The notes beneath the pieces are model-generated. The model ran no database searches, was not told the DNA's origin, and was given only the letters and a program-made list of their open reading frames with translations. Positions 10,237 through 58,022 of a DNA stretch of 64,000 nucleotides are shown one piece after another. Position 1 is the stretch's first letter. Every line of letters begins with the position of its first letter. The stretch is from Platerodrilus igneus (taxonomy: Eukaryota > Arthropoda > Insecta > Coleoptera > Lycidae): the NCBI GenBank assembly GCA_036346225.1, contig JARFIW010000835.1, positions 1,101,829-1,165,828 of the forward strand, given 5' to 3'. Made by a program: the position numbers and the translations under genes.

Positions 10237-10566
10237 AATTATAGACTTATCTGAACTAGGAATAAATTTGCAAACTTTTATAGCTATTGCATGATTCTGC
10301 TAAAAGAATAATTTAGAATCAACAAATTATGTTATTTGCTACTAGACTAAATATTATTACACAAGCCTACTGTTTCAGAAATGCTACAGAAAAGTAAACG
10401 CATTAATTATTATATAGATGTATGTTGTATCATATTTGCAACAGTACTCAAGTGCCTTCCTTCTAATATCGTGCATACTGTACCATATTTGCAACAGCCT
10501 TGAAGTCACACCAGCCTTGCAATTGTGCATGTTGTTGCAAATATGAAAAGAACAATAATTATGTGA
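10237..10566. other. Non-coding spacer with short repeats
   Basis: AT-rich, no gene seen. The word catatttgcaacag occurs near 10,430 and 10,483, and an inverted version (gttgcaaatatg) near 10,535, giving a small dispersed hairpin-forming set next to the MITE. Confidence 0.4.
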
Positions 10567-11211
10567 GTAGTATAACTATGGAGAAGCTGGGACAGCCCTT
10601 TTTAAAGGGTCATAAATATCTTGTAAAGGGTGTGTGTATTATGGAAAAGAGAAGTATGTATGTGTGAAGGTCATGTATGTGTAGGTGTGTGTGTGTGTTA
10701 GTATTAGTTAGGTTTGAGGATAACGATAGTATGGCTATGGAGAAGCTGGCGGCCCTTTTAAAAGGATCATAAATATCTTGTAAAGGGTGTGCGTATTATA
10801 TAAAAGAGAGGTATGTATGTGCAGGTGTGTGCGTGTAGGGTGTAGGGTATGTATGGTTTGTCGGTGAAGTTAACGTGGAAGTCGTGCCGCCCTCGTGATA
10901 AAAGTGTGTGTGTAGATATCGATCGGGGGCGGTGTTGTTGTTGTTTTATTTTCGAAAAGAAAGGTATGTATCGTTATGTGTATAGGTGTGTAGGGGGCGT
11001 GCGTGTTTTAGTCTAAGACGAAATATCGTAAGGGCGCGCAAGTGGTGCGAACGTGTTTTTGTTTTAAGAGTGTGTTTTCGGGGGTGGTGGTCGCGATCGA
11101 GAATAAGTCTGGGTAAATAACCGCAAGGGTTTTTTATTACAGGTGTCGATAAGAAAAAAATTGCGATGGCCCTTTAAAAGGGCTGTCTCAGCTTCTCCAT
11201 AGCTATACTAC
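10567..11211. mobile_element. MITE-like unit with 43-bp terminal inverted repeats
   Basis: The left end gtagtataactatggagaa... (10,567-10,609) is repeated inverted at 11,169-11,211 (...ttctccatagctatactac), with only a few mismatches over about 43 bp. TGA flanks both ends (10,564-10,566 and 11,212-11,214), a possible 3-bp target duplication. A third, direct copy of the terminal module (ctatggagaagctggcggccc) starts near 10,735, giving a subterminal tandem duplication of about 100 bp. The interior is GT-rich and non-coding. The terminal module contains the palindrome cccttttaaaaggg. It could alternatively be terminal DNA of the neighbouring Polinton-like element. Confidence 0.55.
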
Positions 11212-11320
11212 TGACGTAATCGTATTTTTGCTCAAGATGGTTCGATCGATGACGTGTGCGTGTATTTTTGCCCTCCGAGAGAAGATGATGAAAGTGCGCT
11301 ATTTAATTCGTATACAAATA

Positions 11321-11520
11321 CGGGGTCATGATTATCTCATCGGACACACGTGCAAGACGTTTCAAGTAAACTTTTAATAATTTGGAAATGTTACGCTCGA
11401 TGTTTTCGTAGGCAATTATGATGAAGTATTTAAAATAACGCAGAGATTTCAGATCGTCGGGCAAGAGAAAAAAAACGGGGTCGCGATTATCTCATCGGAC
11501 ACGTGCAAGACGTTTTAAAT
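11321..11520 (+). repeat. Direct repeat upstream of the Polinton-like genes
   Basis: A block of about 43 bp beginning ggggtcatgattatctcatc at about 11,321 is repeated at about 11,479 with a few changes (shared gattatctcatcggacac and gtgcaagacgttt). The unit spacing is about 158 bp. It lies in the non-coding region left of the first Polinton-like gene, where a terminal inverted repeat would be expected. No inverted counterpart was found right of 26.4 kb. Confidence 0.55.
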
Positions 11521-11760
11521 GTAATTGTTTCGGTATAAATGGTAAAAAAGTTCTTCCTTAATTTTGTGTGCATTATATGAACCCAAAGCATATACGATGA
11601 CGAAATCGTATTTTTGCCGAGAAATAAAAAGTGGTCGTAAATTTTGTATAGTATACATTCATTATATAAAGCGGAAGTTAAAATATAAATGATCGAGTAT
11701 GTTTGTATAATTATTTTTTATTATCGAAGTCGGGAATCGCTTTTGTTAAAACATTGTATG

Positions 11761-12193: not shown

Positions 12194-12202
12194 TATAAAT
12201 AG
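12194..12202 (+). promoter_or_regulatory. Probable TATA box of the left gene block
   Basis: tataaatag, 160 bases upstream of the first ATG at 12,354. The intervening leader contains aaaacaggtaataatt, a plausible donor for a leader intron. Position and consensus suit an RNA polymerase II promoter for the first plus-strand gene. Confidence 0.4.
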
Positions 12203-12353
12203 AGATCCCTTGTAAGGCTTTTTATCTTGTAAAATATAAGTTTGAGAGTCGTGCAACGTGTTTTGTCATCGTGCAGCTTGCATTAAAAACAGGTAATAAT
12301 TGTAAATATATTTTTTAACTTTATGTAATTATATTCGTAATTAGAATTAAAAT

Positions 12354-12857
12354 ATGGAGTTAATTAAAAAAATCAATTCAGTAAGCCGCATCGATAGGAA
12401 GAAGACCGTAAAAGTCAAAGATCTCGAGCTACAGCGCCCTTATCCGGTTTTAAGCATCAAATCTCTTCAGTCAAAGAAGAATTCTCGGCTCATTCTCGTC
12501 GAATTAGAAGAATGCGTTGTGTTCCTTCCGCAGAGAATCGCGGACGTAATTAGCGACAAAGATATCGAAGAGCTGAATAAACAGGAATGCCTTTGTTTGC
12601 ACTACCTAGGATCGTTCGAAGTTGGTTAGTATTTAATATTTTAATTTTTTATTTAAAAAACTAATACGAAATTCGTTTATTTTAAAGGTAAACCTAATCC
12701 TGCAGCGAGTATTTCCTTCTGCTGCATGGGCGAAAAACAAAAGGATCCATCATCATCAGCCCTCACGGATCCTCCCAAGGAAAATCAAGAACGGCAAGAG
12801 CAAAAAGCCATCCGTATCGTCATCACACTAGAATACCTACCTATACATGGTAATTAA
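12354..12857 (+). CDS. Small conserved-looking protein of the Polinton-like element, one intron
   Basis: An intact 90-codon frame from ATG 12,354 reaches SFEV and then meets a consensus-like donor (gttagt at 12,625) and acceptor (tttaaag ending 12,687). Removing this 63-base gap keeps phase and continues GKPNPAASISFC to a stop at 12,855-12,857, giving about 145 residues. Visible features are an early basic segment RIDRKKTVKVKDLE, the stretch SRLILVELEECVVFLPQRI, an Asp/Glu-rich helix, and a charged Gln/Glu-rich tail. It resembles, from memory, a small unnamed protein found beside arthropod Polinton polymerases. No function is known to me. It is the least damaged gene in the element. The stop-proximal ggtaatt could also be a second donor. 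Confidence 0.5.
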
Positions 12858-12906
12858 TTTTATAATTTTAGTATTTTTACATCTTGATTTTTAAAGTTAT
12901 GAGTAT

Positions 12907-13598
12907 TGAATATAGAATTAGATCAGCAACCCATTACAATCGTGATATGCTAATTGCGGATTATCCACATAATTTTTATAGAATCGCATGCAAGGAATTG
13001 CCTGCTTATTTAAAAGACTTTAAATATCGGGACGGTTTTTGATTGGGTCTCGAGCCCTTTTTCTATTTTGCATGCAATTTAATTTGTTCGACAATTTAAC
13101 GTGCTTAGAAGATTCGTATTCTAACACAATAGCGTTTTGCTTCACCGACGTGTCTCGTATGAAAGAAAAGCTTTTAATTTATGTAATTACGACCGAAGGG
13201 CATTTTATAATATTAGCGAAAGCATCTCGGCCGGTATTAGGTTGTTTAGATTTGTAGATCAATCTGCCGTATCGCCATTAAAAACAGTGTTTAATTTTCA
13301 GTATAAATGTGAAAGTGACATTTTCTTTTATGCAATTCTAAGAACCGATTGCCTATACGTGGACTTAAAAAATAGAGAATTCGTGTTTTCAACTCAATTT
13401 ATTAATTCTTTGTTGATTTGCAGAAAAACCCTCCGCATGCGCTTGCATGAAATCGGCGATTTATTTGTCTATAGTAAATGTGTTAGAACGACAGATGTAT
13501 TTTCTATAAAATCAACTAAAATTACAGATTCAGAAAAATATGCTATAGACTTATCCTTTTGTATAAGATTTTTAAACTCGTACAAATTGTTAGAATAA
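12907..13598 (+). pseudogene. Unknown protein of the left gene block, broken
   Basis: Starts with MSIEYRIRSATHY at 12,913 and runs to about 13,041, where a stop interrupts it. Open frames at 13,039-13,257 and 13,137-13,598 overlap and appear to be parts of one coding region joined by frameshifts. The last and longest piece contains GIRLFRFVDQSAVSPLK, REFVFSTQFINSLL and a hydrophobic end. I do not recognise a domain. Its position, between the small spliced gene and PolB on the same strand, suggests a replication-associated or terminal-protein-like role, but nothing in the sequence proves that. Confidence 0.4.
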
Positions 13599-13734
13599 AA
13601 CGGGGAACTGCATGCCGAATTAGAAGCCATTTTATGGTTCTGCGATTTATCGCCCAAAGACGATACGCCGAACGTATTAGTAAAATTGCACGGTTCAAAA
13701 TACAGAAAGTTGGCATTGAAATACGAAAAAAAAA

Positions 13735-16700
13735 ATGTTAACTAACAGAAAAATCGAAGCGGACGCGGGCGTTTCGATGTGTTGTGATCAGATGCTACAG
13801 TTGTATCGAAAAGTGCACGCAATTTTAACGAAATGTCGTAAAACTAAAGTATTTCGCAATTGGGTTCGAATATTAAAATCACACATTCACAACACCGAAT
13901 CGATTTTAAGAACGGTGAAACAAACTTCTTCTTCGCTCTCGGCTAGTTATCTGAATCTATTCGAAAATCTTCTATGCCATATGAAAAGATATAAAATGCT
14001 ATTTAAAATCTATTAAAAAACTACTGCGGCAGAATGTTCCTAAACAATGGATGTATTCTCGGAGCACGCCTCGACATTCTGAATTGGTTTGGAAGCCGAT
14101 CGTGTCTGCGTTTAAATCGAGAATTCAAACAGCTCAAATTATTAATGTTGCACATAAAGATCTTAATTTATTTATCGAAGATTGTAAAAACTAATTTTAT
14201 CCAAATTGTATACGATTTTAAAAATCACTCGGTAAACCTTAAAATTAATGTCGTGTTAGCGTGCGATTTTTCAAATTTTCCGTCGCGCGTAACGAAAATG
14301 AGTTTCAAACTAGGTATTTTCGACGCCCAACTTTTAATTTGTTTCGGCAATTTAGAAGTTTAACGAGTGGTTTGCGTGCAATATCGCAACACGCTTGTTG
14401 GATAAAATAGAGAACGACGCAATGCACGGGTCAGGATTCACGCTATCCGAAATATTATTTTAAATGTTAATATTAATAAATGCTATGATATGTTTCACGC
14501 GAGTTGTTTCATGCCTCTTCCTATCGCAATTCAAAACAAAAGGCCTGTTTAAACATTAGAAACAATGATTTTCATGCTTTTATTGGAGCGTTTTAGCCGG
14601 AATAATTAAGCCTACAGCAGGTAAGCATGCTAATCGCACAACTTCGTATCCGCATTTTGCAGAAATTTTTAATATGAAAAATTTGGTCAGCCCCATGCCT
14701 ATATCGGATATATCGAAATTCGAAAAGCAGAATGATATTTCTGTAAATGTTTTGCTCTTATTTTAAAACGCGCTCGATACATCGTAACACCGGTACAATT
14801 AACTAGCCAAAACGAGATAAACACGTTAATCTGTTGATTGTTGAAGATGCGTATGTCGACGAGTCGTCAAAATTTAATTCTGACGACGGCGAAGACGTCA
14901 ACGGCGATGACGACGACGACGACGGCGACGAGGCCGATAAAGTTGGAAAAAGTTTGGAAGAATTAAAAAAATATTAAAGATTATAAACGGGGCGTTAGAT
15001 ATCATTATTGTCTTATAAAAAATTTAGCCTCACTTGTGAGAGGCCAATTAACTAAACATACGGGTCACTTTTACGTATGCGATAGATGTCTCTCCTATTT
15101 TTACGATCGCAAACGTCTCGATGTCCACGAGCAAGTATGCGAAAAACTTAACGAGTGTCGTGTTATTTTACCCTCCGAAAAAAACAAATATTTACAATTT
15201 AAAGATTTTAAGTATAAAATACCTGTGCCGATGGTGGTTTATTCTGACATAGAATGCCTTATTAAAAAACCGAAAGAGCTTCCGAATCAGAACGCACTTT
15301 CAAATACCAGGAACATATTCCGTTTTCAATAGGATATTATTTTTATTGTGGATATGACGAATCTCTTTCATATTACAGTCCATACACGGGCACAGACTGC
15401 ATTTCTTGGTTTGTGCGACAATTAAAACATATTGCCATATGTTATGGGAGCGCATTTTTAAAAACGAGCCTGCTACGTCCTCTATAGATGCCTCGACGGC
15501 AAAAACGTGCTTTATTTGCGAAGTCGATTTCTTGCCGGACGACGAAAAGGTTATCGATCACGATCACATGAATGGTTCTGTAAGAGGTGTTGCGCATAGC
15601 AGCTGTAATTTAAATTTTAGGTTATTTCCAATTATTCCGTAGTCTATCATAATTTGAGCAATTATGATGCTCATTTTATTATTAAAGAGCTTGCTAACGC
15701 TTTCGAAGGCCCCATGAATATAATACCCTTGAATAATGAAAATACATAACATTTTCTAAAAAATACAACGACGCAAATGTGACGTTCAGATTCATAGATT
15801 CCTTTCGCTTTATGGCAATGTCATTGGAAAAATTAGCATGCGAGTTGTCTTTCGATGACTTTAAAGTTTTAAAAAGGAATTTAGCTCGCTAAACCCGGAT
15901 CGCATTAAATTGCTAATGCGCAAGGGTATTTTCCTACAGTATTTGGATGACATTTTGAAATTAAGCGAAGAAAATCTTCCTCCTATAGAATGTTTTATAG
16001 CAATCTTAATGAATCACATATTGAAGAATCGGAATATATTCATGCGCAAACCGTATGGAGCACTTTTAAATGCAAAATTTAGGCGACTACGCGGACCTAT
16101 ATTTAAAATGCGACATTCTTTTACTTTGCGATATATTCCAAGACTTTAGAAAAATTGTCTTGAAACATACAAATTGGATCCCTTAAATTTTGTGACTTTG
16201 GCGAGCTACTCGTGGTCTAGCATGTTATTATATACTAAAATCAGGCTAGAACTAATTTGTGACGTCGACATGTTTTTAATGATCGAAAGAGGCATTCGGG
16301 GGGGCCTTACTCAAGTCGTAAAACGATATGTAGAATCCAATAATAAATATTATCCCCAAACGTATGATCCATCGCCGAATAAATTTTTATTTTACGGAGA
16401 TATTAATAATCTCTATGGTCATGCCGAATCTTGCTATTTGCCTTACGGGATTTCAAATGGCTAACGCCTGAAGAAATATTAAAATTTAATGTTACAACGG
16501 TGAGCATTACGAGCGATAAAGGTTATATTATCGAATGCGACTTGGAATTTCCTACGGACATTCACGACGCTCAGAAAGAGTTGCCGATGTGCCCAGAACA
16601 GGACACGCCTCCGGGCTCGAAATTTTCAAAATTAATGTGCACTCTCACGAAAAGTTCAACTACGTTGTGCATTACAGAAATCTCAGGTTTATTTATCTGC

Positions 16701-17618
16701 GGGCGTAGTTATGACGCGCGTTCATAAGGTTTTAGAATTCGGTCAGTCTCCTTGGTTGAGACCGTTTGTCGAATTAAATACAAGAATGCGCACGGAAGCT
16801 AAAACGGAATTTGCACAAAATCTATATAAATTTGCAAACAATTCCATTTTGGTAAAACAATGGAGAATGTTAGGAAAAGACGCGTCATAAAATTAGTGAC
16901 TCATTGGAGCGGTCGGTATGGTGCTCTATCTTTAATTTCCAAACCAAATTTCCATTCGGCAACGATTTTTGACAAAAATCTGGTCGCGATCGAATTGAGC
17001 AAAACAGAGATAGAGTTCAACAAACCTATCTACATAGTATGGCCATCTTAGAATTATCAAAATTGAATTATATAATTTTCACTACGATTTCATGAAGGCA
17101 AAATTTGCAAATAATTGCGAATTATGCTACATGGACACCGACAGCCTTTTGTATAGTGTGACGTGCAATGATTTCTATGAAGAGTGTATAAAGACGAATC
17201 TAGAAAAATTTGATACGAGCGCTTATGATCCCGATAACATCTATAAAATTCCTTTAATTAATAAAAAAGTCATTGGTCTTATGAAAGACGAAACTAGAGG
17301 TCGTATTTTAACGCACTTTGTAGGCCTTCGATCGAAAATGTACTCTTTAAAAAAGAAGGCCGTGAGATAATAAAGAAGGCTAAGGGTGTTAAAAAGTACA
17401 TTATCGATCAGCAAATCTGTTTCGATCACTATCTCGATACGTTACGAAATAAAGTAGTTATAGAGCGAGACCAAAATAGCATACGATCATATTTGCATAA
17501 GGTATATTCCATACGTCAGACGAAAATTGCTTTAAGTTATCAAGATGATAAAAGATACATTTTATCTAACGGAATAGATACTTTGCCTCATGGGCACTAT
17601 CTAATAAAGGACCTTTGA
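13735..17618 (+). pseudogene. polB: Protein-primed family B DNA polymerase of the Polinton-like element
   Basis: A broken 3.9-kb coding region. The helical N-terminal part is at 13,735-14,195. After several frameshifts, a Cys/His cluster (YVCDRCLSYF, about 15,075) precedes the exonuclease motif VVYSDIECLI (15,236). An HNH-like insert follows, with CFICEVDF and IDHDHMNGSVRG (about 15,510-15,600), then a YDAHF exonuclease block. Polymerase motif A lies in GDINNLYGHAES (about 16,398), motif B (K-x3-N-S) near 16,831-16,860 with a frameshift inside it, and motif C in CYMDTDSLL (about 17,126) with both catalytic Asp retained. The end LPHGHY is typical of the family, and aataaa overlaps the stop at 17,618. 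This enzyme would replicate the linear DNA from a protein primer. At least ten stops or shifts make it inactive. Confidence 0.85.
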
Positions 17619-17639
17619 ATAAAACCATATTTTATTTTG

Positions 17640-18070
17640 TGAATTGCATGTTTATTATAAAAAATAATTAAAATCTTGTAACGAGAAAGAAATTGCATTG
17701 TCTTTTTGTATTTTTATATTATAAAAACCGCATTGTATTTTTTAATTTTTTATATTATGTATAAAATTAATTTAAAAATATATTTTAAGCGCTGTTGTAG
17801 AGGCTCTCTTTGTTATATTGTAATCAAGAAAAAAGCATTGTATTTTGTTATTTTTATATTTATTATAAAATTAATTAAAATATTGTAACAAGCCAAGATA
17901 AAAAAAACTGCATTGTATTTTTATTTTTATATTATGTATAAAATAAACTAAAATAATACATTTTAAGTGCTGCTGCATGTCAAAGTATCGCAGTTGTAGC
18001 GTCTCTATCTTTCTTATTTTTACAAGATCAAAAAAATGTATAATAAAAATCAAACAAAAAAGAAACAAAT
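17640..18070. repeat. Convergent-end spacer with AT-rich direct repeats
   Basis: Between the tail-to-tail PolB and integrase genes, a unit containing gcattgtatttt, tatattatgtataaaat and tttaagcgctg recurs near 17,730, 17,837 and 17,910 with drift. The spacer is over 80 percent A+T in most of its length and carries aataaa-type signals on both strands, suiting a shared 3' processing region. No gene seen. Confidence 0.45.
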
Positions 18071-18125
18071 TTTTATTTTTGAAATGTAACATATTTATAT
18101 AATAAAAATATAAAAAACAAATGTT

Positions 18126-19076
18126 TTATTTTAAATGTAACAATCTATATAAGATCAGCTTTTGAATCCAGGAAGGCTCTTGGAAGCCCAACCATTTGAC
18201 GAGAATTTTGGTTCCTTTTCGCCTTAGTATTTTCTCGATAAGGTAAATATTTGGAACTCTCGTTTTCTGCAGCTCAGCTTCATAAAACTGTCCCAATACT
18301 GGATCGCCATGCATGTCGACGAGTAAATAAGTAGTCGGATTTGCTCGAAACACTTTACATATTTTAAACGTCTCCTCGCTCCAGTTTGCATTGTAGCCCT
18401 TAGAAAAATACTTCTATATTTTGAAATGCGTACAAAGTCGTCCACGGCATAACGAGGTTTTCTAGTCGCCAGTTTTAATTTATCGTAAACTTTCAGACGC
18501 GTTTTCGCGGTCACATTTTGGGTTTTCTTTTAGTGGTCGAATGCACCGTATCGTTGTATTTCGATACAATCGAATCGATTATATCAATCCACTTCCATTT
18601 GCCTCTCAGACTAAAAGCTTTATACAGTTTGTTTTTATCGTTCTGATTGCACGTTCTACGATGGCGGCTTTGATTGAGCTATATGTGGAGTAATGATTAA
18701 TATCGCCATATTCCTTCATCAGCCGTGCAAATTGGCCGTTATAAAATTCTGTACCATTATCTGTTTGCAGATTTTTCGGTAAAGGCGGCCGCGATCTTTT
18801 AATTTCATTTAGAATCTCGCGCATCGCAGATGTGACTTCATGACCATTCTTGGATTTAAGCGGTCTCGTCCATAAATATTTCGAATAGCAATCGATCACG
18901 AGTAGAATATACTTATGCCCTTTATTATATTTCGAATATGGAATAAATTCAGCAATATCGGCTTGGAATAAGTCGTGATAAGATTTGATGATCGTTCTTC
19001 GACGTGGAAAATTTATTCTAACCCCTCTGTGCAGTTCATCCACTAGTATTTCCTTATCGTTATATTTCTTAGACAT
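18126..19076 (-). pseudogene. Polinton integrase (rve) with C-terminal chromodomain
   Basis: The N-terminal 156 residues (19,076-18,606) are open and contain the retroviral-type DDE core: FQADIAEFIPYS (first Asp), LQTDNGTEFYNG (second Asp) and AIVERAIRTIK (Glu). The frame then breaks near 18,610. The C-terminal half is split between frames at 18,514-18,224 and 18,353-18,126. It includes KLATRKPRYAVDDFVRISK, a typical SH3-like region, and a chromodomain-like end: IEKILRRKGTKILVKWLGF then EPSW. Polinton integrases insert the element and duplicate 6 bp. The gene lies last in the leftward block, next to the fibre-like gene (2-base gap). Confidence 0.85.
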
Positions 19077-19078
19077 TT

Positions 19079-19978
19079 TTAAGGTTTGACACGAGTATGA
19101 GAGTTAGACGACGAGGCTTTATCTTGCTCCAATAACACGTGCAGGTGTCTTATAACGTCGGTATTAATTTTGTGAAATTGTAAATCGCCTCCAGCAGACG
19201 TCTTGACTCCGTCTAATTTCAAGTGGTTGAAAATCAGGAAGTTCGTGTTTAAAACAACTTCGTTCAACACTTGAACGACCGATTGCAATACATCTCGAAT
19301 GATCACGTTATCGCGGTGAATGGCGACACCTTCGATAAGATTTTGTATTCTCGCGTTCACATAGAACTTAGAAACGGCATCGTGCTCATCTTCGGCCTCG
19401 CCTATGTTGACAATTCTCAAGCCTCGAGTCGAAGTTCTTGGCCTTACCGTCGTCGATCGTGGTTAGTTTCATAAAATTTTGCGCTTTTTCTGACAACGTC
19501 GAGTCCACGTATCTCTTGTTAACGGCATCGCCGAGCTCTGCGGGGTCGTGCAAATTTACAATGGATCGCGATTTGGCGTCAAATTTAAGTTTCTTATTAG
19601 CATGCGTTTTTCCCGAAGATGAAGCGGTCAAACATATTTCCAATGCTTTGCCTATACGCAGATTGAGTTCTTCGCTGCAAAATTTTAAGTTTACGCCGTC
19701 GTTTGATTTTTAGGATCGGCCAAATTCACTATTCTAAAATCCTTCAAGTTAACTATTTTCTCGTCCTCGTCCAATACCAAGGCGCTTCGTTTATTTACCG
19801 CATCCGTTCCGGTCACGGGATTGCCTACGTTGCAAAGTTTTCTATTTTCTATGTTGAAATCGCCTTCCGGAGTTAGTTTAAAGCCTACACCAGGAGGCCC
19901 GCGCGCAGCAGTATTACCAAACCCTCCGCCTCCAGAGTCTCTGGCAACATACGCTCTTCCAAATTTATCGACGACCAT
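19079..19978 (-). pseudogene. Tail-fibre-like protein with D-A-V-N-K repeats
   Basis: Three frames from ATG 19,978: 19,978-19,691, 19,643-19,386 and 19,420-19,079, separated by two frameshifts. The N-terminus is glycine-rich (RDSGGGGFGN, ARGPPGVGFKL). The body carries repeats of the type I-V-N-L-x-D-P/x-E then D-A-V-N-K-R: CNVGNPVTGTDAVNKRS, IVNLHDPAELGDAVNKRYVD and IVNIGEAEDEHDAVSKFYV. This repeat is well known from bacteriophage tail fibres, where it forms trimeric shafts. The C-terminal 100 residues are helical and lack the repeat. By analogy it could be a virion fibre or receptor-binding protein. That role is inference; the repeat itself is directly visible. Confidence 0.65.
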
Positions 19979-20017
19979 TTTATTTCTGAGACTATTCTAT
20001 AGAACGTGTATATTTTA

Positions 20018-21058
20018 TTAGGCGATTAATTTCGCCTCCTTTAATTCGGATATAATAGAAAGAAATTCGTTTTGATTCTGAGAGCTATTGTTGCCCGCCG
20101 AACGTTCGGCCATCAACAAACGAAGCCGGCTCACCAGCTCGGCCGGCGAGTCCCAATGAACGTATTCTATCTCATGATTAGAATTATCGAATTTTTTGTA
20201 TCGCCAAATTCTGCTTATATTACTCGATGGCTGTCTTTTTCGATAAATTATCCATACCGAGACCTTTCTTTTTCTTCGTTATTTTGGATCGTAATTGCAT
20301 GGGAATCGTAGGAGTCGCCGATGCTGTATTCATCTCTCTTGACGACAACGACGACGGTGACGGCGACGAAGCATGCTGCGGCGAGGAGGAGGCGTAGATA
20401 TTGTAGTCGCCACGGGCGACGGTGTTAAATTCGGAACGATATAATTTTTATATTTGGGCGTTTTAGGCAGATCCTTGCGAAACAGTTTATTATATGCATT
20501 GGTTTTCTTCAAAATATCGATGTAATTTTTACATCTAGCTCGGAAGGATTGCCAGCAGGCGTTTTCTTATTCGAAGGATTTTCTTATAAGTTAACAATCG
20601 AAGTAAGCCCTCCGTAATAGGATATTTTTATTTCTAATATTAATCGTAGATCCGTCGTCTGCAATAGCTAACTCTGAATTGCCCATAGACCATTTATTCG
20701 AAAGGTCGTCGTATTGAATGCCGATTCCGGTATCGTCTATATTGGGATCCTCGCTTTTGGACAGGATGTCGGCATACTTTTTAAGTAAGGCATCTGAACC
20801 GTCGCCGACATTATCAGATTCGTGCTCCGCATTCTGACGTCGAATATAATTAGGATTTTTACTTGCAGAGAATTTTGATAGCGATTTTAACGGTTCTAGT
20901 AATTGAGCATGCTTCATTCCGTATTTTAATTGAGCTCGATTTTGATCTCGTTTAAAATCTAAAACTTTTCTTATCGTTTTAGTGGCCTGCACTACGGCTC
21001 GATTTAAATTCGTAGAGTGACGTCGTCGTCGTCCTCGTCTCATCGCAGCCGCAGACAT
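20018..21058 (-). pseudogene. DUF8207-like protein of the Polinton-like element
   Basis: ATG at 21,058 opens with a very basic N-terminus (MRRGRRRRHS), then long charged helices, then DDTGIGIQYDDLSNKWSMG and SELAIADDGSTINI, which fit the DUF8207 family common in arthropod Polinton-like elements. After a frameshift near 20,590, NAYNKLFRKDLPKTPKYKNY and a Pro/Thr/Ser-rich segment follow, and the C-terminus EYVHWDSPAELVSRLRLL and SIISELKEAKLIA ends at 20,018. Function is not established. The basic N-terminus and the location among virion genes suggest a DNA-associated or internal virion protein. Confidence 0.65.
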
Positions 21059-21089
21059 TGCGTTGATGAAAGTTCGCTCGAACGTCGTG

Positions 21090-21819
21090 ATTTTAAATAC
21101 ATATGTAATGATCGAATCCTTTACGGTAGCGGCCCTCGTTTATGGCTTTTCTTTGTCTACCACTAAGAATCCGTATCCGGCTTTATTGCCATCGCCGTCT
21201 TTTTTCCCACGCTAGACGGCACATCTTTTGAAATCTTCGAAGCTCATGTCGGTATTAATGTGCTCCGAATAGATATGTCTTAAGTTCATTTCGTCTTGCA
21301 AAAAAACTATAATTAAATTTGTATTGTCGCGAATAAGATGCTTCGGTATTCTTGCATACGATTGGCTGAGGTAGAACGCGTCTATATTCTTATGACGGCT
21401 CATTGAAAAATATTGACGAATCGCGTTTTGTTCGTGACATTGAATGTCGTCGAAAATGAAAATCGAATTACTCTTAGCATCTTGCGGTGAAATTATTTCA
21501 GAATTTTCGCTAAATTCGTAATAGCCTAGTCCCTTGATCGGTCTCAAAACTCGACTCAAAAAATCGTATTTGGGCTGAAATAGCGACTTGGAGTAAATGT
21601 AAACGTTTTCAAATTCCAATCCGTTGGGTGCCAGTAACAAACTCAAAATCAGGTTTGTTTTACCGCACGCAGAAGGTCCGCATACGATGCATCTTATGCT
21701 GGCCGGTAAGAGATCTCCGTGCTTTTGCGCGTTCCAAAATAGGAATAAGGATCATCCTGCTCGACCGTTAGATCCATATTTGCAACCGGTAGAGATTGTT
21801 TCTGTTTAATAACCTTCAT
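21090..21819 (-). pseudogene. A32/FtsK-HerA-type genome-packaging ATPase
   Basis: Start ATG at 21,819 (MKVIKQKQSLPVAN), frameshift near 21,730. The Walker A loop CGPSACGKTN lies near 21,690-21,660 in a second frame. The frame 21,646-21,212 continues YSKSLFQPKYDFL and the Walker B stretch SNSIFIFDDIQC with paired Asp, then AIRQYFSMSRHKNIDAFYLS and LIRDNTNLI, a conserved order in Polinton and poxvirus-A32-like ATPases. Sequence resembling the family C-terminus (GYGFLVVDKEK) follows a stop after KRCAV, down to about 21,100. The enzyme would pump DNA into capsids. It directly follows the major capsid gene. Confidence 0.8.
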
Positions 21820-21824
21820 GTCTA

Positions 21825-23156
21825 TTATTCGCTAATATGACGCGTAACGATTTCCGTAAACGGATCGTATTCGAATATAGAGTCGTGCAAAATTAAGCAG
21901 TATGCTTTAGTGGTTTGATCGAAAATGTTGCTGGATTCGATTTCGAGACGTATATCGACGGCCGAATTTTTAATAGATTCTTCTTGACGACTGCAATCGA
22001 TCACGAACACGGGACAATTGCCAAATTGCTGATAGTCGTTCAAACAACACAGAGCGTAGCTCAAATTGCTCGCGCCTGCATAATAGTTTTCCGGAAATTT
22101 CGAATAGTGCATGAACGGGTCGAATAATCGTTATTGGCAAAGTCCGAATTCATATCTTGAAGTGGAAATTCTTGGGAATTAAGGTATAGTTTTAAATTTG
22201 TCAGATTGCAGTGATCGAACTGGGCTGCCGATTGCTTCGCATTATCATACTTGCCATGCTGAAGAGTAAATAGAATCCATCGAGGTTTTCTAATTCGTTC
22301 GAATTCTTAATACGCCAAACGTGAATTTTCGAAGACGGAAAGGACGGCAACTCGTGAAGCTCCCAGCGACGAAAGTAAACCACAATTCTGGGATTTTTAT
22401 GCAAATGATGGAATAAATTTAATTTCGATTCATCGCTAAGCTTTAAATGCGGAACCTCCACGATATTTTAGTAATTTTAAATGTTAGCTCGTTTTCGTCG
22501 CTCTTGTAACAATTGACGTCGCTCTTGGATCTAATTAAAACAAGCTCTTGCGGCATGTTTACGACGGCTCGTTTATAATCCTCGCAAAATCCAAAAATAT
22601 GCTTTAGAGGCACATTGCACGAGAAGCGTCCGTTCTTAAAAATGTCGGCGTTTGTATCTCCTCGAGGGTCCCAGGTGCTATTGCTCAAACCGTTGAATTT
22701 TTTGTGATACGAAGCGAGACCCTTCATCGTGCACGTTATACCAGGCTGCTTACAAACGTCGACCACATGCGTGCTCCCCATTTTGTACTGTATTTCATCG
22801 AACAAGAATAATATTGCGTTGTTCGTTATCGTATACGGTTTACCTTCGGTTTTCACCGAAAACGTTCCCTTAATATTAATGTAACTGTCGTAGGTTGCGG
22901 TTATAGCATCGGAATTTTGGATTTCTATAATCACTCTATCGCTGTGGTCTGTGTTTCGCGTGAAGGGTAAATACGAATAATAATCTTCTTTCGAAATTGT
23001 CTCTTCGTAGCGAGGCCTTTTGAATACGTCTAATTTGGCCACCTCGTCAAAACGTAATTTCTTCAAAGGAGAACTAATCACCGACGAGATGTGATCTGCG
23101 ACCATTTTCGTGCTACTACCAAAATCACCACGTATTTTACCGCCACGTTTAGCCAT
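21825..23156 (-). pseudogene. Double-jelly-roll major capsid protein
   Basis: The N-terminal 237 residues (23,156-22,443) are open: FDEVAKLDVFKRPRYEE, a region ITNNAILFLFDEIQYKMG, CKQPGITCTMKGLASYHKK, and the end ELTFKITKISWR. The frame then shifts and continues 22,461-22,201 with VPHLKLSDESKLNLF and VYFRRWELHELPSFPSS, shifts again, and ends at 21,825 with CPVFVIDCSRQEESIKNSAV and HDSIFEYDPF. This order is that of the DJR-like proteins of arthropod Polinton-type elements, proposed to form the icosahedral shell. Length (about 440 codons) is normal. Two or three frameshifts inactivate it. It sits between a small basic ORF and the packaging ATPase. Confidence 0.8.
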
Positions 23157-23179
23157 TTCTAGTACTTTTTTTCTATCTC

Positions 23180-23522
23180 GTATTCAAAAGCTTGTAGCCG
23201 AGCGCTTTTAAGAAACTTGCGTCTGCGCGACTAAGAGCGAGGTTCTTTTTCCTCTTCTTTTTAATATGATGTCGCTTTTCACACCTCTTCCGCTTTTTAT
23301 TTCGTTATGGCCTAACGATGATTTGCGTGCGACTGCAGATTTCGAGAACGTTTTTGCGTTTTATATAGGTTTGTTTTGAGGAAGAAGAAGAAGAAGACTT
23401 CGGCAGCAACGACGATAACAATGCCCAACGCGCGGATTTTTCTTAGGTATATTGACGACTGCGGCTAACGTCTGTTGCTGCTGCTGCTGATGCTGACGCT
23501 CGTCATCGTAAACGACGCCCAT
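23180..23522 (-). pseudogene. Small basic protein between the two capsid genes
   Basis: ATG at 23,522 begins MGVVYDDERQHQQQQQTL, a Gln-rich start followed by a Leu-rich run caused by (aag)n sequence, and stops near 23,360. A second frame downstream is very basic and ends RADASFLKALGYKLLNT near 23,180, just before the major capsid ATG. The FL-x-x-LG-Y/F end resembles, from memory, a small protein that often lies at this point in arthropod Polinton-like elements. Function unknown; a minor virion component is possible. Confidence 0.4.
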
Positions 23523-23570
23523 TTTAACTTAATAATAATTTTATTATTCGCGTCTTAGCTCTAGGCGAAC

Positions 23571-24286
23571 GCAAAGTACGTATCCTTCGAAAAATTAACC
23601 GCTTCACCCGTATGATCCACCAGTCTCAACGTAATGTTATCGAATTCGTCCACGCACAGAGGGAAACGAATTATATTGCTGGGTTGTTGTTCTATGCTGT
23701 AGCCAGGGGCACGGTTAGGCCAAATTCGTAAATGCTATGACAAAGTTGGTTATTGCGGTACGCTCCCGTCGTAATGTTAGTATCTACGAAAATATTAGAT
23801 ACCGAAATTATTTCCACATCGCGATCGGACGTATGCGAACGACCTTCCTCTAAAATTCGATCATGAAATCCCAGCATTCGACCGATGTTGCCGCGCTTCG
23901 TGAAGTCTACGGAGTATTTCGATTTTATTTCGCACTTTAGGGTATTATTATTAGCTCTTAAAGAAAACAAGCCGTCGACCAATCCGTCGTCGTCCAAAGT
24001 TACGGACGAATTAATTTCTTTGTTGGCTTTAGCCGACTCAATATCTTTTTCTCAGGAACGTGTTTAGCTCGTCTATTTCGTAGCATCCCTCGTCGATGGT
24101 GATTTCTTTATCTTTATCGTAATAGAACTTATTATTTCCCTCGTAAATATTTCGAACGGTGTTGCACGTGTAAAGACCCACCAAGCCGCAGGTGTACGTG
24201 CCGCCATCGTTCAGTCTCACAGGTGGGTATAGCGTACCGCTGCTGATGGTATTTCCATACCCGAATATCGTGAATGTCCTAGACAT
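23571..24286 (-). pseudogene. Penton-like (single jelly-roll) minor capsid protein
   Basis: Starts at ATG 24,286 with RTFTIFGYGNTISSGTLYPP and reaches RKRY then stop at 24,038. A second frame (23,997-23,692) continues with LKCEIKSKYSVDFTKRGNIG, RMLGFHDRILEEG and ISVSNIFVDTNITTGAYRNN. A third ends GYSIEQQPSNIIRFPLCVD and VNFSKDTYFAFA at 23,571. The pattern NI-x-R-MLGF and the C-terminal QQPSNIIRFPL block are typical of the minor capsid (penton-base-like) proteins of arthropod Polintons, which close the capsid vertices. The start codon overlaps the end of the protease gene by eight bases. Confidence 0.75.
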
Positions 24287-24746
24287 GAATGTAGCGCTCC
24301 GAGGGCATTATGGTTCTTTTATGTAAAAATTTCAACACTAAATGACCGCACACGATCGTGTTAAAGTCTTGCTCCCTTTCCACGTTATAATATATATCGC
24401 TACCGTGAAAATATCTTAAGACTTCCTCAGGAGGCCTCAGGTCTCGAAACTATCGAAGTATATCACCGTATTGGCCCTTTTTTATAACCGACCCAATGCG
24501 TGCCCGGACCGGATCCATCGTCTAAATTTATAATACCACTTTCGTTTCGCCACGGCGGTGCTAAGCTTCCGTCGCGTCTTTTAGCGGCAACTCGTCTCGC
24601 ATGTACACGCCTCTAAAATACGGAACACCTTTAGCATATTTGTGCAGATCGAGATCGGTCAATGCGCGCATGGGAGGTGTAAGGGTGGTGGTGGTGGTGG
24701 TGGTGGTGGCGGCGAGCTTAGCATTCCTCGATACCGTCGAAGTCAT
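24279..24746 (-). pseudogene. Adenain-like cysteine protease
   Basis: ATG at 24,746 with an expanded threonine run (residues 14-21, from a (ggt)n microsatellite on the plus strand). After frameshifts near 24,560, 24,475 and 24,440 the adenovirus-protease-like core is visible: GPGTHWVGY, with the catalytic His, then VIYFDSF, with a following Asp, and QDFNTIVCGHLVLKFL, with the catalytic Cys and a Gln seven residues before it, the spacing seen in adenain. The family matures capsid proteins by cutting at Gly-containing sites. Three breaks inactivate it. Its stop at 24,279-24,281 overlaps the penton-like ATG. Confidence 0.8.
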
Positions 24747-25043
24747 CCGTTTTTTGAATCCCCCGGATAAGGTTTCAAGTACAAGGCGCTACCTTTCTTG
24801 TGAGGCTTTAAATACAATCCGCTGCCGACTTTTTCTCTTCCATGGCTCTGTTGTGACGCGCGTTCTCGTCGAAATACCTCTTTGCATTTTGGCCGAATTG
24901 ATGGCGTTTGCGACGCTCGACGCTCCGCCGGCCAGTGCTCCGAGCGCCGAAAGACCCGCCAATATCGGAATCAAAGGCAATAAGCCTCCTCGCTTGGGCA
25001 CCGGTATTATGCGCGGTACTTTAATTTTCGAACGACCTCCCAT
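24743..25043 (-). pseudogene. Glycine-rich hydrophobic peptide (pX/pVI-like core or membrane protein)
   Basis: ATG 25,043 gives MGGRSKIKVPRIIPVPKRGG, then the hydrophobic Gly/Ala stretch LPLIPILAGLSALGALAGGA (residues 22-41) and a basic tail. After a frameshift near 24,815 the tail repeats L-Y-L-K-P (GLYLKPHKKG then ALYLKPYPG) and stops at 24,743-24,745, overlapping the protease ATG as atga. Short hydrophobic-plus-basic proteins with L-Y-L-K/N-P repeats sit at this place in arthropod Polinton-like elements and have been compared with adenovirus pX/pVI. A membrane-active or DNA-condensing role is inference. Confidence 0.55.
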
Positions 25044-25051
25044 CCTGTTGA

Positions 25052-25663
25052 CTATAATTTTGCAGCATTCATCGCGCTCGAAATGAGACGATTATGCGAA
25101 GCATCTCCGTGTCCTTTACTCTTGATGCTTTGTTTTCTGATTTCTTTAGATATTTTACTTATAAGACCGCCTCTGAAGGAGCATTTTCTGCCGACGTTAC
25201 CGTTATTGTCTTTGAATTTACCCGAGCATCGACGTACTCGACGTCGTCGTTTTTGTCGTCGTCGTCGTCCTCCTCGCTGTCGACGATCCAGTTTCACGGC
25301 CATTTTCTTGTCTATTCCCATTCCTAGTTTGCGTTTCGCTTTCATTGCAGCCGTTACGCCCAACGCTGCGAGCTTCTCGGACCACTTAGAATCTTTGGCC
25401 TTGACTCGCCGCCAAGCCGCTTCTTGCAAGACCTTGTCGGCCTCGTGCCTGCGCTCCACGTCTTTGTGATGCGAATACGCGATGTCGTGCTGCTTGCACG
25501 CTTCGTCTAGAGGATTAATACCTTTGTCTCCGCGATTTAAACGCTCTTGTAGCCTGGTTCCGGGACCGCAGAAGTTATGACCAGGAAGGTGCAGTTCGAA
25601 GGGCAATTTATTTAAGAGGTTGTTGAACAACCCTTCACCCCGTGTACCAACATTGACTAACAT
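25052..25663 (-). CDS. Parvovirus-type phospholipase A2 domain protein
   Basis: Read from ATG 25,663 (MLVNVGTRGEGLFNNLL) this frame is intact for about 203 codons. A PLA2 domain is clear: LPGHNFCGPGTRLQERL, the calcium-binding loop Y/F-x-G-P-G-T, then LDEACKQHDIAYS, the catalytic D-x-x-C-x-x-H-D-x-x-Y motif with His-Asp intact, and helical KVLQEAAWRRVKA. The C-terminal half is extremely basic (GGRRRRQKRRRRVRR), suiting DNA or nuclear targeting. In parvovirus VP1 the same domain breaches endosomal membranes. The upstream ttgcaggag looks like a splice acceptor; the frame is also open further upstream through a (TA)n run, but that stretch encodes only Tyr-Ile repeats and is unlikely to be coding. 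Confidence 0.75.
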   Translation of the reverse strand: MLVNVGTRGEGLFNNLLNKLPFELHLPGHNFCGPGTRLQERLNRGDKGINPLDEACKQHDIAYSHHKDVERRHEADKVLQEAAWRRVKAKDSKWSEKLAALGVTAAMKAKRKLGMGIDKKMAVKLDRRQRGGRRRRQKRRRRVRRCSGKFKDNNGNVGRKCSFRGGLISKISKEIRKQSIKSKGHGDASHNRLISSAMNAAKL

Positions 25664-25687
25664 CTCTCCTGCAATAACGTAACAATT

Positions 25688-25689
<2 letters not shown>

Positions 25690-25728
<39 letters not shown>
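25690..25728. repeat. (TA)n microsatellite
   Basis: About 19 uninterrupted TA dinucleotides just upstream of the PLA2-domain start codon, in the position of a leader or intron. Likely to vary in length between copies or individuals. Confidence 0.9.
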
Positions 25729-25732
<4 letters not shown>

Positions 25733-25767
25733 ACTGCATACAGAATAAATTTTATTTACAAAAAGGA

Positions 25768-26377
25768 TCATACACTATCTTTAAAATACAAAGGTTTCAT
25801 TTCGACATTTAAATTCTTTTGATATAAACATAATACGTCATCGACAATTTCGTGAGGGAAATGGCGCGTGATTTCTAATAAGCCGAGTCTGTTGATGTCG
25901 TAAAGAACGTTTAGGGTACTTAGGGATGGATTTCCAAATACGTATTCGCTTATCATCTCGACTCGACATAAGATTTGATCCTGCACGTTCGAATAAAGTC
26001 CAGCATCCTCGAGGAGGGACGCCTTCACCTCCATCGTCGTCGCCGTCGCCGCTACTGCTCTTGCACCTGTTATACGCGTAAGCTCCAAACTCTTCGGGAA
26101 GGCAAGTGGCGACGCACTCTATATTTCTATCGTAGAACTCTTGAAAATCTTGTCCTTTCAATATTTCTAATTTGAGCATTACAAGAGGCGCTAGAGTAAA
26201 CACTTTTGCAAATTCTTCGCGGGAGAGAGAAATTCGCGCAACATTGTATCCGGATCCTGTTGTTGTTGATTCTAATGCGGCGAGAGCCGCAGCAGTTTTT
26301 TGCACCTCGACTCTATGAATGGACTCGTATTCGTCTTTAAATTCCACTTCCAAGTATCCGTCGATCGTCTGATGCAT
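25768..26377 (-). pseudogene. Unknown first gene of the leftward virion block
   Basis: Two overlapping frames, 26,377-25,838 and 26,088-25,768, look like halves of one gene with a frameshift near 26,050 in a (ggc/gac)-rich stretch. The N-terminal half reads TIDGYLEVEFKDEYESIHRV, LSREEFAKVFTLAPLVMLKL and a Cys pair; the C-terminal half reads MISEYVFGNPSLSTLNVLYD and ITRHFPHEIVDDVLCLYQKN. The frame is also open upstream of 26,377 to about 26,450 (Ala/Val-rich), so the true start may lie there. No domain recognised. Its position upstream of PLA2 and on the same strand suggests it belongs to the element. Confidence 0.45.
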
Positions 26378-26461
26378 TTCACGCCTCCAGTGCCATGCGA
26401 CTACGGAGGCGGCGGTAGCGCCTGCAGATGCAACCGTGGCAGTATCCGAGCGGTTGGAAAA

Positions 26462-27320
26462 AATTTTCTAAATTTATGTTTGGAAATTGTTAGAACAGAA
26501 GCTGGTCAAAGTATAAGTTAGATAGATGATTAACCGAGTTTTTTCTACCTTTTACGAAGGAAACGGAAGTTGACAGACATCGAGCATATAATTCTCTATT
26601 TGGGTGCTATCGAGTACTTGCCGGTTCTAGAAATAATTACGTGCTACCGACCGCTATGCGGAAGATTTGGTTCTAGGAAATGAGCAACCTACGAATGCAC
26701 AGAATACTCGGTATTAATGCTAACTGGTTTAGTGACCGCGCTTGTGCACTCTGCGAGTGACTTCGACAATCTTCGATTGTTTCCAAAGAAAACATTCAAA
26801 CCTGCCATTTCCTAAAATATGACGTAGAAGTTATTTAAAATTAAATTGCTTTATTAGCATTCTGTAGACAACAAGTTTGGTATTCCTTTAGTAAAGGTTT
26901 AAAGTGTTTTATTAAGTTTTTAATTATAGTAGCACTGCATCTTCTACAGCACGACTTGCAGTCAATTTGTGTGCGTGTGCTACAACCCTTTCGGATTTTT
27001 AACGCGATGCGATTATTGATCCGTAAAACACGGAAGACATGTCCGATGTTTCTACTAACTACATTCGCAGCATGGACGATGCGACCGGGTGCATGCATTG
27101 GTGTTAAATGTACTGGGCGAGCAGCAAGGATTGGCAAAAGATGACGTCATTTAGTTCACCGCTGAATCCTCAACTTCGTTCGGCCGTCTTCGGAAACCTT
27201 CGGTTTGCATTCTATAGGGAACATAAAGCAGGCGCGCAAGAGTAAAGTTTTTAGTTATAAGTTATTTCGCTTACAAGTTTAACCAAAGTCCTATAGTGCG
27301 GATTTTGTTTTGTACTAAAA
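26462..27320. other. Non-coding DNA right of the Polinton-like genes
   Basis: The right terminal repeat of the element would be expected here but no inverted match to 10.6-12.3 kb is visible. Only short shadow frames occur. The last 100 bases before 27,320 are AT-rich and might serve as leader for the zinc-finger frame. Confidence 0.4.
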
Positions 27321-27326
27321 TGGTAC

Positions 27327-27801
27327 CTGCAAACGTTTTAAATGCAACTCTTGCGGTGCTTCCTATACCTGGAAAAATGCTCTCAAACTGCACCAGAACA
27401 AATGTTGTGGTGTAACATCCTCCACGGTTAAGCTTATACATCCGTCAGCAGCAAAGTACTTAAACTGTATGTCTTGCGGTATCGCTTTTACGAGAATGGA
27501 CAACTTACTGCGACACAAGGAAAAACAGCACGGTATGTCATTAAGCCGTAAACGTTCAGCTCCGACAGCTGTTAAAGGGTCTTGTACGAAACAACCACGA
27601 ATTATGTGTAAAGTATGCGATTTCAAAATGGAAAAAACTACCTATGCCGCACACTTGAGAAGCAACAGGCATAAAAATGCAACAGTTACCGCTACTGGCA
27701 AAGATGGTGTAGAAGTGGTTAGCACAGCGTTTAACAACCGTATGGCTAGCTATCGCATAAAGAACACCAGTGTTGACGATGAAGTGTCCGAGTTTCTTTA
27801 A
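27327..27801 (+). CDS. Solo C2H2 zinc-finger protein resembling Polinton polymerase N-terminus
   Basis: An open frame runs from just after a stop near 27,322 to a stop at 27,799-27,801; the first in-frame ATG is at 27,469, but the frame upstream is coding-like. Three zinc fingers are visible: CNSCGASYTWKNALKLH (His partner then C), CMSCGIAFTRMDNLLRHKEK with a second His, and CKVCDFKMEKTTYAAHLRSN with a following His. The last is of the AHLRSN-x-HK type, followed by a block ending NRMASYRIKN and VSEFL. In arthropod Polinton-type polymerases this finger and a SYR(I/V)-x(n)-FL block precede the exonuclease. Here it ends cleanly with no polymerase behind it, so it is either a fragment or a captured stand-alone gene. 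The true start is unknown. Confidence 0.55.
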
Positions 27802-29735: not shown

Positions 29736-29811
29736 GAGGAGTATCTCAAAAATTTTAGGGGTTAGGTTATCGATTTTTAGGGTAGGGATGGTTGGGGTAA
29801 AAATCCCACAA

Positions 29812-29905
29812 GGAGATCCACAAGGAGGAGATTCATCTCCACAAGGAGGAGATTCATCTCCACAAGGAGGAGATTCATCTCCACAAGGAGGAGATTCATC
29901 TCCAC
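29812..29905 (+). repeat. 21-bp minisatellite
   Basis: Four tandem copies of a 21-base unit beginning cacaaggaggagattcatct, preceded by a partial copy (ccacaaggagatc). The copies are identical, so the array is young. It lies at the left limit of BEL-2. Confidence 0.9.
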
Positions 29906-29995
29906 ATTTCCTTTTTATGGGAATTTACATGTAAATTTGGTCCAGATGTGTGAGAAAATGTGGATGCTGGAGGAAATGTGATCACAAAACAACCG

Positions 29996-38499: not shown

Positions 38500-38880
38500 G
38501 GACTAATCAAATTTATCGGCCAGACTTTTTACAATACTATGCTTATGCCAACTTTCCGAAAAACTAGATTCAACGAATTTCCCACGATCCATAAAAACTT
38601 GCTCTTCGTTCTTGCAAAAGGATAAAAGAACGTTCAATTTCGAATTCGAGTCAGTTCTCTGCGCTGCTACTAGCCAGAAAAACTTTACACTCCAACACCA
38701 TCTTAGAATCCACAACTCCCCATTCCTTATTCCTACTTGGGAATTCCAATACGGCAAATCCAACATTGACATTACTCTCACCAACTCCCCAGCCTCAAAC
38801 CTAATTAGTTCCTAGACAGTTTCTCACATCCATCAATCCAGTGATCATAATTCAATTACATTTGATATCCTATCCAATCT
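38500..38880 (+). pseudogene. R1-like LINE endonuclease C-terminus
   Basis: Translated in shifting frames this stretch reads HLRIHNSPFLIPTWEFQY then IDITLTNSPASNLI, and further on an S-D-H-N-like block (reads SSDHNSITFDI, about 38,838). These are the last conserved blocks of LINE endonucleases (x-D-I-T-L-x-x and S-D-H-N). Stops and shifts separate them. Confidence 0.6.
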
Positions 38881-55688: not shown

Positions 55689-55739
55689 CCACAGATGCTG
55701 GATTAGGCGTTTTGCAAAAGTGTTAGTGGGGCTAAAACC

Positions 55740-57997: not shown

Positions 57998-58022
57998 TGT
58001 TCAGTGGGAAACTTTAAGTTAG

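What the first reader, a model, noticed from the sequence alone, without database searches (positions are those of the whole stretch)
12194..26461. Complete but fossil Polinton/adintovirus-like virus genome
Seen: polymerase, integrase, ATPase, protease, major and minor capsid, PLA2, DUF8207, fibre-like and small genes in two convergent blocks. Known: Polintons/adintoviruses encode this set. Inference: an integrated virus-like element, inactivated by frameshifts in almost every gene. The small spliced gene at 12,354 and the PLA2 gene are the exceptions with open frames.
Basis: partly seen in the sequence, partly recalled or inferred. Interest (0 to 1): 0.75.

Follow-up and report, generated by a model that had tools for sequence, protein, structure and literature searches.

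The report
Young high-copy Polinton, not fossil
The block is a clipped copy of a virus-like mobile element (a Polinton) that has recently multiplied through this large, probably insect, genome; its broken reading frames come mostly from one-letter gaps that vary from copy to copy, so it is not an ancient fossil, and the gaps may be assembly error or a trace of the element's own copying enzyme.

Summary
The gene set is real: polymerase B, integrase, ATPase, double-jelly-roll capsid, penton, PLA2 protein and fibre-like protein are supported; the protease rests on motifs read by eye; DUF8207 was not confirmed. 'Complete' and 'fossil' are wrong. The left terminus is at 10,566; the right arm is lost at about 26,494, where another repeat begins. 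One full copy elsewhere is 19.55 kb with inverted ends, a 6-bp target duplication and an empty site in a LINE. The genome holds at least 39 other copies at 96-100% DNA identity. Outside the capsid gene, copies differ by 4-8 substitutions and 4-7 gaps per kb; gaps are mostly 1-nt in homopolymers and vary from copy to copy; unbroken capsid, penton, PLA2, fibre and integrase frames exist in other copies, an unbroken polymerase was not seen. The PLA2 gene is broken here too. A BEL family of similar divergence lacks these gaps, so they are tied to Polintons; they do not track substitution distance. Most likely residual assembly error; polymerase slippage is not excluded.

The parts
10566..11525 (.). 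left terminal inverted repeat (begins AGTAGTATAACT); inner edge approximate
   Evidence: 38 of 39 other matches begin at 10553-10566 and the last is split in two; inverted copy found at the right end of L044 and L058; 8 of 8 loci, the window's included, share the first 14 nt behind different 6-mers
12354..12626 (+). small gene, first exon (91 aa), function unknown
   Evidence: open here and in 4 of 8 copies; longest ATG ORF of its 701-base stretch, a length reached by 9 of 1000 shuffles; no homologue found; fold model poor
12872..14360 (+). unassigned coding-like stretch between the small gene and PolB
   Evidence: ORFs of 157 and 118 aa here, longer in some copies; no Pfam match for the three window pieces tried, only weak ones for a 248-aa ORF of L049
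14569..17615 (+). DNA polymerase B gene, broken frames
   Evidence: Endonuclease_7 in window piece 15358-15639; DNA_pol_B_2 in an unbroken 274-aa ORF of sister copy L053, none in a 263-aa ORF of L048; YMDTDS motif read by eye; no whole open frame in 8 of 8 copies
18129..19103 (-). retrovirus-like integrase, broken; putative chromodomain end not confirmed
   Evidence: rve E 7e-11; solved integrases E 1.5e-5 at best; 293-aa open ORF in 2 of 8 copies
19079..19996 (-). fibre-like protein, broken
   Evidence: 306-aa open ORF in 3 of 8 copies; Phage_T7_tail E 1.8e-12 for the one in L032
   Evidence: no convincing match
21215..21751 (-). packaging ATPase (A32/FtsK-like)
   Evidence: Pox_A32 E 1.5e-4 under cut-off; 60% identity, E 9e-77, to L011
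21828..23183 (-). double-jelly-roll major capsid gene in four pieces
   Evidence: PF21738; one open frame of 402 aa or more in 2 of 4 copies picked by their left end, in 0 of 9 copies picked for likeness to this region
23564..24307 (-). penton / minor capsid gene, broken
   Evidence: tblastn to the gene beside the capsid gene in L002-L009; 255-aa open ORF in 6 of 8 copies, without a Pfam match
24282..24788 (-). adenain-like protease, putative, broken
   Evidence: GTHWV and VCGH motifs by eye; position next to the PLA2 gene; Pfam, NCBIfam and PDB negative
24746..25660 (-). PLA2-bearing membrane-active virion protein (PLA2 plus pX-like hydrophobic tail), broken
   Evidence: PF08398 E 4e-13; 1203 homologues; the 15 aligned carry both parts in one protein; 98 of 120 listed match in 2 or 3 frames; 284-327-aa ORF in 3 of 8 copies
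25771..26467 (-). unassigned gene at the truncated end
   Evidence: no family match; sister copies continue beyond it
26476..26494 (.). break point: Polinton homology ends at 26494, another repeat family begins at 26476

Best explanation
This is a right-truncated copy of a recently amplified Polinton family. A full copy is about 19.5 kb, with inverted terminal repeats of about 1 kb beginning AGT and a 6-bp target duplication (shown for one copy). It encodes an integrase and its own polymerase B for insertion and copying (function inferred from the families) and a virion set: DJR capsid, penton, ATPase, probable protease, a PLA2 protein likely to breach membranes on entry, and a phage-like fibre likely for attachment (roles inferred). 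The frame breaks in this copy are mostly 1-nt gaps in homopolymers that vary from copy to copy, not shared fossil decay. I judge them most likely to be residual consensus errors in near-identical 20-kb repeats (about 0.6). That the element is young, truncated and part of a high-copy family is nearly certain (about 0.95).
For: At least 39 other copies at 96-99% for the left end and 98-100% for the capsid region. Substitutions mostly private to one sequence: 86 of 89 sites in PolB, 53 of 72 in integrase-ATPase. Ends, TSD and a 193-bp ungapped empty site. Gaps 4.3-6.9/kb against 3.9-7.9 substitutions/kb over three regions; 65-91% of gaps are 1-nt, 52-86% lie in homopolymers of 3 or more; step at run length 4. 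Gap sites recur in 2-6 of 8 copies more often than substitution sites: 49 of 82 against 3 of 89 in PolB, 20 of 50 against 19 of 72 in integrase-ATPase. Homopolymer gaps do not correlate with substitution distance in 5 of 5 sets (rho -0.14 to 0.20, p 0.19-0.70). Unbroken frames exist for capsid, penton, PLA2, fibre and integrase. The Polypolish abstract (PMC8812927, its start seen in the listing) says that homopolymer errors are the commonest residual error of long-read-only bacterial assemblies and often survive polishing in repeats.
Against: A BEL family with more first-look candidates (2,110) and 10-14 substitutions/kb among three copies has 0 gaps at 86 homopolymer runs of 4 or more, whereas another Polinton lineage at 10.8/kb has gaps at 7.5% of 4-nt and 19% of 5-nt runs. 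A generic failure of polishing in repeats should have hit both. Gap density at the left end, next to host DNA, is 6.7/kb, not lower than inside, though its 4-nt runs are hit less often (3.9% against 7-11%). No reads were available.
Confidence: 0.6

Rival explanations
1. The gaps are real and made by the element: its polymerase B copies DNA outside mismatch repair and slips on homopolymers, so that most new insertions arrive with broken genes while a few intact genomes keep the family going.
For: Gap excess at homopolymers of 4 or more in two Polinton lineages (capsid pieces 34-42% identical) but not in BEL, ZnF-repeat or LINE controls (1 of 161, 1 of 69 and 0 of 23 runs); where one copy differs it is shorter at 39 sites and longer at 12, a loss bias as expected of slippage without mismatch repair (recalled).
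Against: Some 2-3.5 gaps per kb per copy (half of the pairwise 4.3-6.9) is very high for a polymerase with an exonuclease motif (read by eye); sharp step between runs of 3 and 4; no correlation with substitution distance, though a burst at the last copying step would also give that. In the capsid region of the 9 copies picked for likeness, 0 of 36 comparisons of 5-nt runs differ.
Confidence: 0.25
2. Ancient fossil: one old insertion decayed neutrally.
For: Frames broken about 2.8 times per kb against 0.6 in two BEL elements of the window (16 in 5.7 kb against 5 in 8.1 kb, p 0.001; hand counts).
Against: At least 39 near-identical copies; breaks vary between copies; gaps about equal substitutions, whereas an older repeat here has about one gap per ten substitutions (ZnF repeat).
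Confidence: 0.02
3. A family amplified while broken, moved in trans by intact Polintons.
For: In the 9 copies most like the window the capsid gene shares one frame change with it; another lineage with open capsid genes is present; no unbroken PolB frame was seen in 8 of 8 copies.
Against: That capsid sample was picked for likeness; 2 of 4 copies picked by their left end have one open capsid frame; penton, PLA2, fibre and integrase are open in 6, 3, 3 and 2 of 8 copies.
Confidence: 0.1

Closest known systems
Sf Maverick 1 and 2 of Spodoptera frugiperda (PMC5803895; part 1 of section 11 and passages read)
   Same: PolB with endonuclease VII domain, rve integrase, A32-like ATPase, PLA2-bearing 'CAP', adenovirus-like protease; in Sf Maverick 2 PolB lies on the strand opposite to the other genes; two lineages in one genome
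   Different: Gene order differs from the order in which they number the ORFs (here the ATPase follows the capsid gene). A fibre-like gene is present here.
Polintons with DJR capsid and penton (PMC4028283; passages seen)
   Same: MCP, penton close upstream, ATPase, protease, pPolB, RVE integrase; size 15-20 kb
   Different: PLA2 protein and T7-tail-like fibre are not in the passages seen
Adintoviruses, now Eupolintoviridae (PMC11071296 and PMC12451622; passages seen)
   Same: lipase-type Macc protein class, hexon, penton, integrase, PolB
   Different: OTU-like PolB domain not tested and integrase chromodomain not confirmed here

Membership tests
Polinton/Maverick | family B DNA polymerase | tested here: met
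   DNA_pol_B_2 E 1.8e-6, over cut-off, in sister copy L053; endonuclease VII domain in the window
Polinton/Maverick | retrovirus-like integrase | tested here: met
   rve E 7e-11
Polinton/Maverick | packaging ATPase | tested here: met
   Pox_A32 just under cut-off; 60% identity to an open ORF beside another Polinton capsid gene
Polinton/Maverick | adenovirus-like cysteine protease | tested here: inconclusive
   motifs by eye; profiles and PDB negative
Polinton/Maverick | DJR major capsid protein and penton | tested here: met
   capsid; penton:
Polinton/Maverick | inverted terminal repeats and 6-bp target duplication (6 bp recalled) | tested here: met
   met in sister copy L058/L059; the window copy keeps only the left end
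Polinton/Maverick | length of about 15-20 kb (PMC4028283) | tested here: met
   19,551 bp for one copy; 15,929 bp left in the window
Adintovirus (definition in PMC11071296) | PolB with N-terminal OTU-like domain | not tested
   no OTU profile hit was seen, but no whole N-terminus was searched
Adintovirus (definition in PMC11071296) | integrase with C-terminal chromodomain | tested here: inconclusive
   looks so by eye; no chromodomain match in Pfam or PDB
Adintovirus (definition in PMC11071296) | Hexon reciprocally recognisable by BLASTp with adintovirus hexons | not tested
   no adintovirus hexon sequence was at hand

The most novel reading that the evidence does not exclude
The homopolymer gaps are true mutations laid down by the Polinton's own polymerase, which escapes mismatch repair; genomes with many young Polintons would then keep a readable slippage record, and most insertions would be broken on arrival.
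Probability: 0.22. Interest if true: 0.75.

Novelty: new member of a known kind. Interest (0 to 1): 0.45.

Why it matters
It turns a supposed fossil into evidence of a recent burst of a capsid-bearing Polinton family, shows that one element carries both a DJR capsid and the PLA2 protein, and warns that frameshifts in high-copy Polintons must be checked against sister copies before they are called dead. If the gaps are real, Polinton replication fidelity becomes measurable from genomes.

Tried and rejected
Relatives in IMG/VR: six scans gave one weak PLA2 hit, L001, a phage-like contig; of 18 window pieces only the PLA2 piece matched it at E below 0.1. A GTDB scan with the PLA2 alignment gave none. 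Terminal repeats within the window: none pairs across the element, since the right end is missing. Small gene: no homologue, poor fold (mean pLDDT 45). DUF8207: no paper, no homologue of the 182-aa piece. PLA2 model (mean pLDDT 76): best named viral structures are entomopoxvirus and densovirus PLA2 proteins, none at E 0.001 or better, best 4e-3; nothing convincing in PDB by fold; by profile, four 'Capsid protein' sequences at E 9e-4, parvoviral as I recall the entries. A zinc-finger ORF at 27319 was considered as part of the element and rejected. My first count of breaks against BEL pointed to age; the sister copies overturned it. A capsid frame change shared by 10 of 10 sequences looked like a fixed lesion; copies picked without regard to the capsid overturned that.
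Full report
What is there. Pieces of the window were searched apart, never joined. Pfam finds a retrovirus-like integrase core (E 7e-11), the double-jelly-roll capsid domain in four consecutive pieces on the minus strand, a PLA2-like domain (E 4e-13) and a recombination endonuclease VII domain (E 2e-7) of the kind reported inside insect Maverick PolB (PMC5803895, section 11 part 1). The ATPase piece scores just under the A32 cut-off. DUF8207 and the protease are not confirmed by any profile; the protease rests on motifs read by eye and on its place beside the PLA2 gene.

The PLA2 gene is not an exception. A protein search found 1203 relatives at E 0.001 or better, of which 120 are listed; most of the named ones are from insects. 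In the 15 that I aligned, PLA2 and a glycine-rich hydrophobic tail form one protein. Against the window, 98 of the 120 listed match in two or three reading frames and 22 in one, some of these as long gapped matches or short proteins. So this gene is broken too. The small gene at 12,354 is open, but at the rate of breaks counted by hand in other genes that is expected with P about 0.46, and it is open in only 4 of 8 sister copies.

Sister copies. DNA of the left flank matches at least 39 other places at 96-99%, 38 of them starting at 10,553-10,566 and one split (40 of 1,062 candidates scored). The capsid region matches at least 39 at 98-100% (40 of 1,061 scored). A separate lineage, with capsid proteins 34-42% identical to the window's pieces, is present as well: 126 of 9,709 candidates were scored, all over the cut-off, most with open frames, but these are the best-scoring ones. 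In the stretch beside one such capsid gene (L011) lie relatives of the window's ATPase (60%), integrase (51%), PLA2 protein and penton, which secures those names; gene order and strand differ.

Ends. One far copy has its left terminus in L059 and its right terminus in L058: 19,551 bp, AGTAGTATAACT...AGTTATACTACT, flanked on both sides by CTTGTG; its joined flanks match the LINE at window 40,033-40,225 over 193 bp without a gap, at 91%. In 8 of 8 left-end loci, the window's included, the same 14 nt follow different 6-mers. Over the first 577 aligned columns the two terminal repeats of the far copy differ by 12 substitutions, about 21 per kb, more than left ends differ between copies (mean 6.7 per kb), so they are not kept identical. 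In the window the Polinton matches stop at 26,494 in 7 of 8 copies and at 25,689 in one with a deletion. The six of these copies compared with each other stay alike for about 2.4 kb more, to the end of the fetched stretches. For the three copies tried, the missing right part is nowhere else in the window. An unrelated repeat family (first look 15,466 candidates, 40 scored, 88-93% over its main block) begins at 26,476.

Nature of the breaks. Against 8 copies per region the window shows 3.9-6.9 substitutions and 4.3-6.9 gaps per kb; copies among themselves show 4.1-7.9 and 4.5-6.9. The capsid region varies less: 2.1-3.2 substitutions and 2.8-3.5 gaps per kb in four copies picked by their left end. 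In the integrase-ATPase and PolB regions 85-91% of the gaps are 1 nt and 76-86% lie in homopolymers of 3 or more; in the penton region the shares are 65-80% and 52-57%. The chance of a gap rises from 0.2-0.5% of 3-nt runs to 7-11% of 4-nt and 21-25% of 5-nt runs; at the left end it is 0.6, 3.9 and 22%, and in the capsid region of 9 copies picked for likeness 1.8, 4.0 and 0% (0 of 36). Substitutions single out one sequence at 86 of 89 sites in PolB and 53 of 72 in integrase-ATPase; gaps do so at fewer sites, 33 of 82 and 30 of 50, and recur in 2-6 of 8 copies at the others. Unbroken frames occur in other copies: penton 255 aa in 6 of 8, PLA2 protein 284-327 aa in 3 of 8, fibre 306 aa in 3 of 8, integrase 293 aa in 2 of 8, capsid of 402 aa or more in 2 of 4 copies chosen by their left end, in 0 of 9 chosen for likeness. 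No unbroken PolB was seen in 8 copies. Unbroken ORFs of sister copies give DNA_pol_B_2 (E 1.8e-6) and Phage_T7_tail (E 1.8e-12), both over the curated cut-offs; of the ten ORFs scanned, four matched a family over its cut-off.

Error or biology. For error: no correlation of homopolymer gaps with substitution distance in five of five sets, recurrence at the same runs, and the known weakness of polishing in repeats (PMC8812927, start of abstract seen in the listing, about bacterial assemblies). Against error: a BEL family whose best copies are 95-98% identical to the window's (2,110 candidates, 40 scored) shows a gap at 0 of 86 runs of 4 or more among three copies and at 1 of 75 against the window; the ZnF repeat shows 1 of 69 and a LINE flank 0 of 23; among three ZnF copies 2 of 6 runs of 6 nt differ. 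Another Polinton lineage at a divergence like BEL's shows gaps at 7.5% of 4-nt and 19% of 5-nt runs, although its sample was picked for best capsid score, which should lower the count. The excess is thus tied to Polintons in the families compared. I keep assembly error as the likelier cause because 2-3.5 gaps per kb per copy is hard to credit to a polymerase, but slippage outside mismatch repair is open. One paper search for Polinton, polymerase, slippage and homopolymer listed no paper that holds the word polinton among the 8 shown of 537; that is a thin search.

How it most likely works. Inferred from the families: integrase inserts the linear element with 6-bp duplications (duplication shown for one copy); PolB copies it; capsid, penton, ATPase and protease build and fill a particle; the PLA2 protein breaches membranes on entry, as parvovirus capsid PLA2 does (profile match to capsid proteins; their identity as parvoviral is recalled); the fibre attaches. 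PMC11071296 (passages seen) has a class of membrane-active capsid core proteins, some with predicted lipase activity. PMC5803895 reports the PLA2 protein in place of the jelly-roll capsid; here both are present in one element.

Limits. Only the best-scoring copies were scored, so copy numbers are lower bounds and the first-look counts are not proofs. Pairs of copies are not independent. Break counts were read by hand from ORF lists.

Noticed in passing
26476-27874 and 28499-28800: A separate repeat family with a 160-aa C2H2 zinc-finger ORF, at least 39 other copies at 88-93% over the main block, joins the truncated Polinton.
   Followed up: partly
38684-40644: A LINE with reverse transcriptase; a copy of it elsewhere is the insertion site of a full-length Polinton, giving a clean empty site.
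   Followed up: yes
53542-58727: A BEL/Pao retrotransposon of a young family (2,110 first-look candidates; the best 39 others at 95-98%) with almost no homopolymer gaps.
   Followed up: yes
19079-19996: The fibre-like gene matches the phage T7 tail-fibre N-terminal family (sister copy L032); such a fibre is not in the Polinton passages that I read.
   Followed up: partly
L002-L009 and L011: A second Polinton lineage in the same genome has a different gene order and strand of ATPase and integrase.
   Followed up: partly
29796-29921: Array of a 21-bp unit.
   Followed up: no
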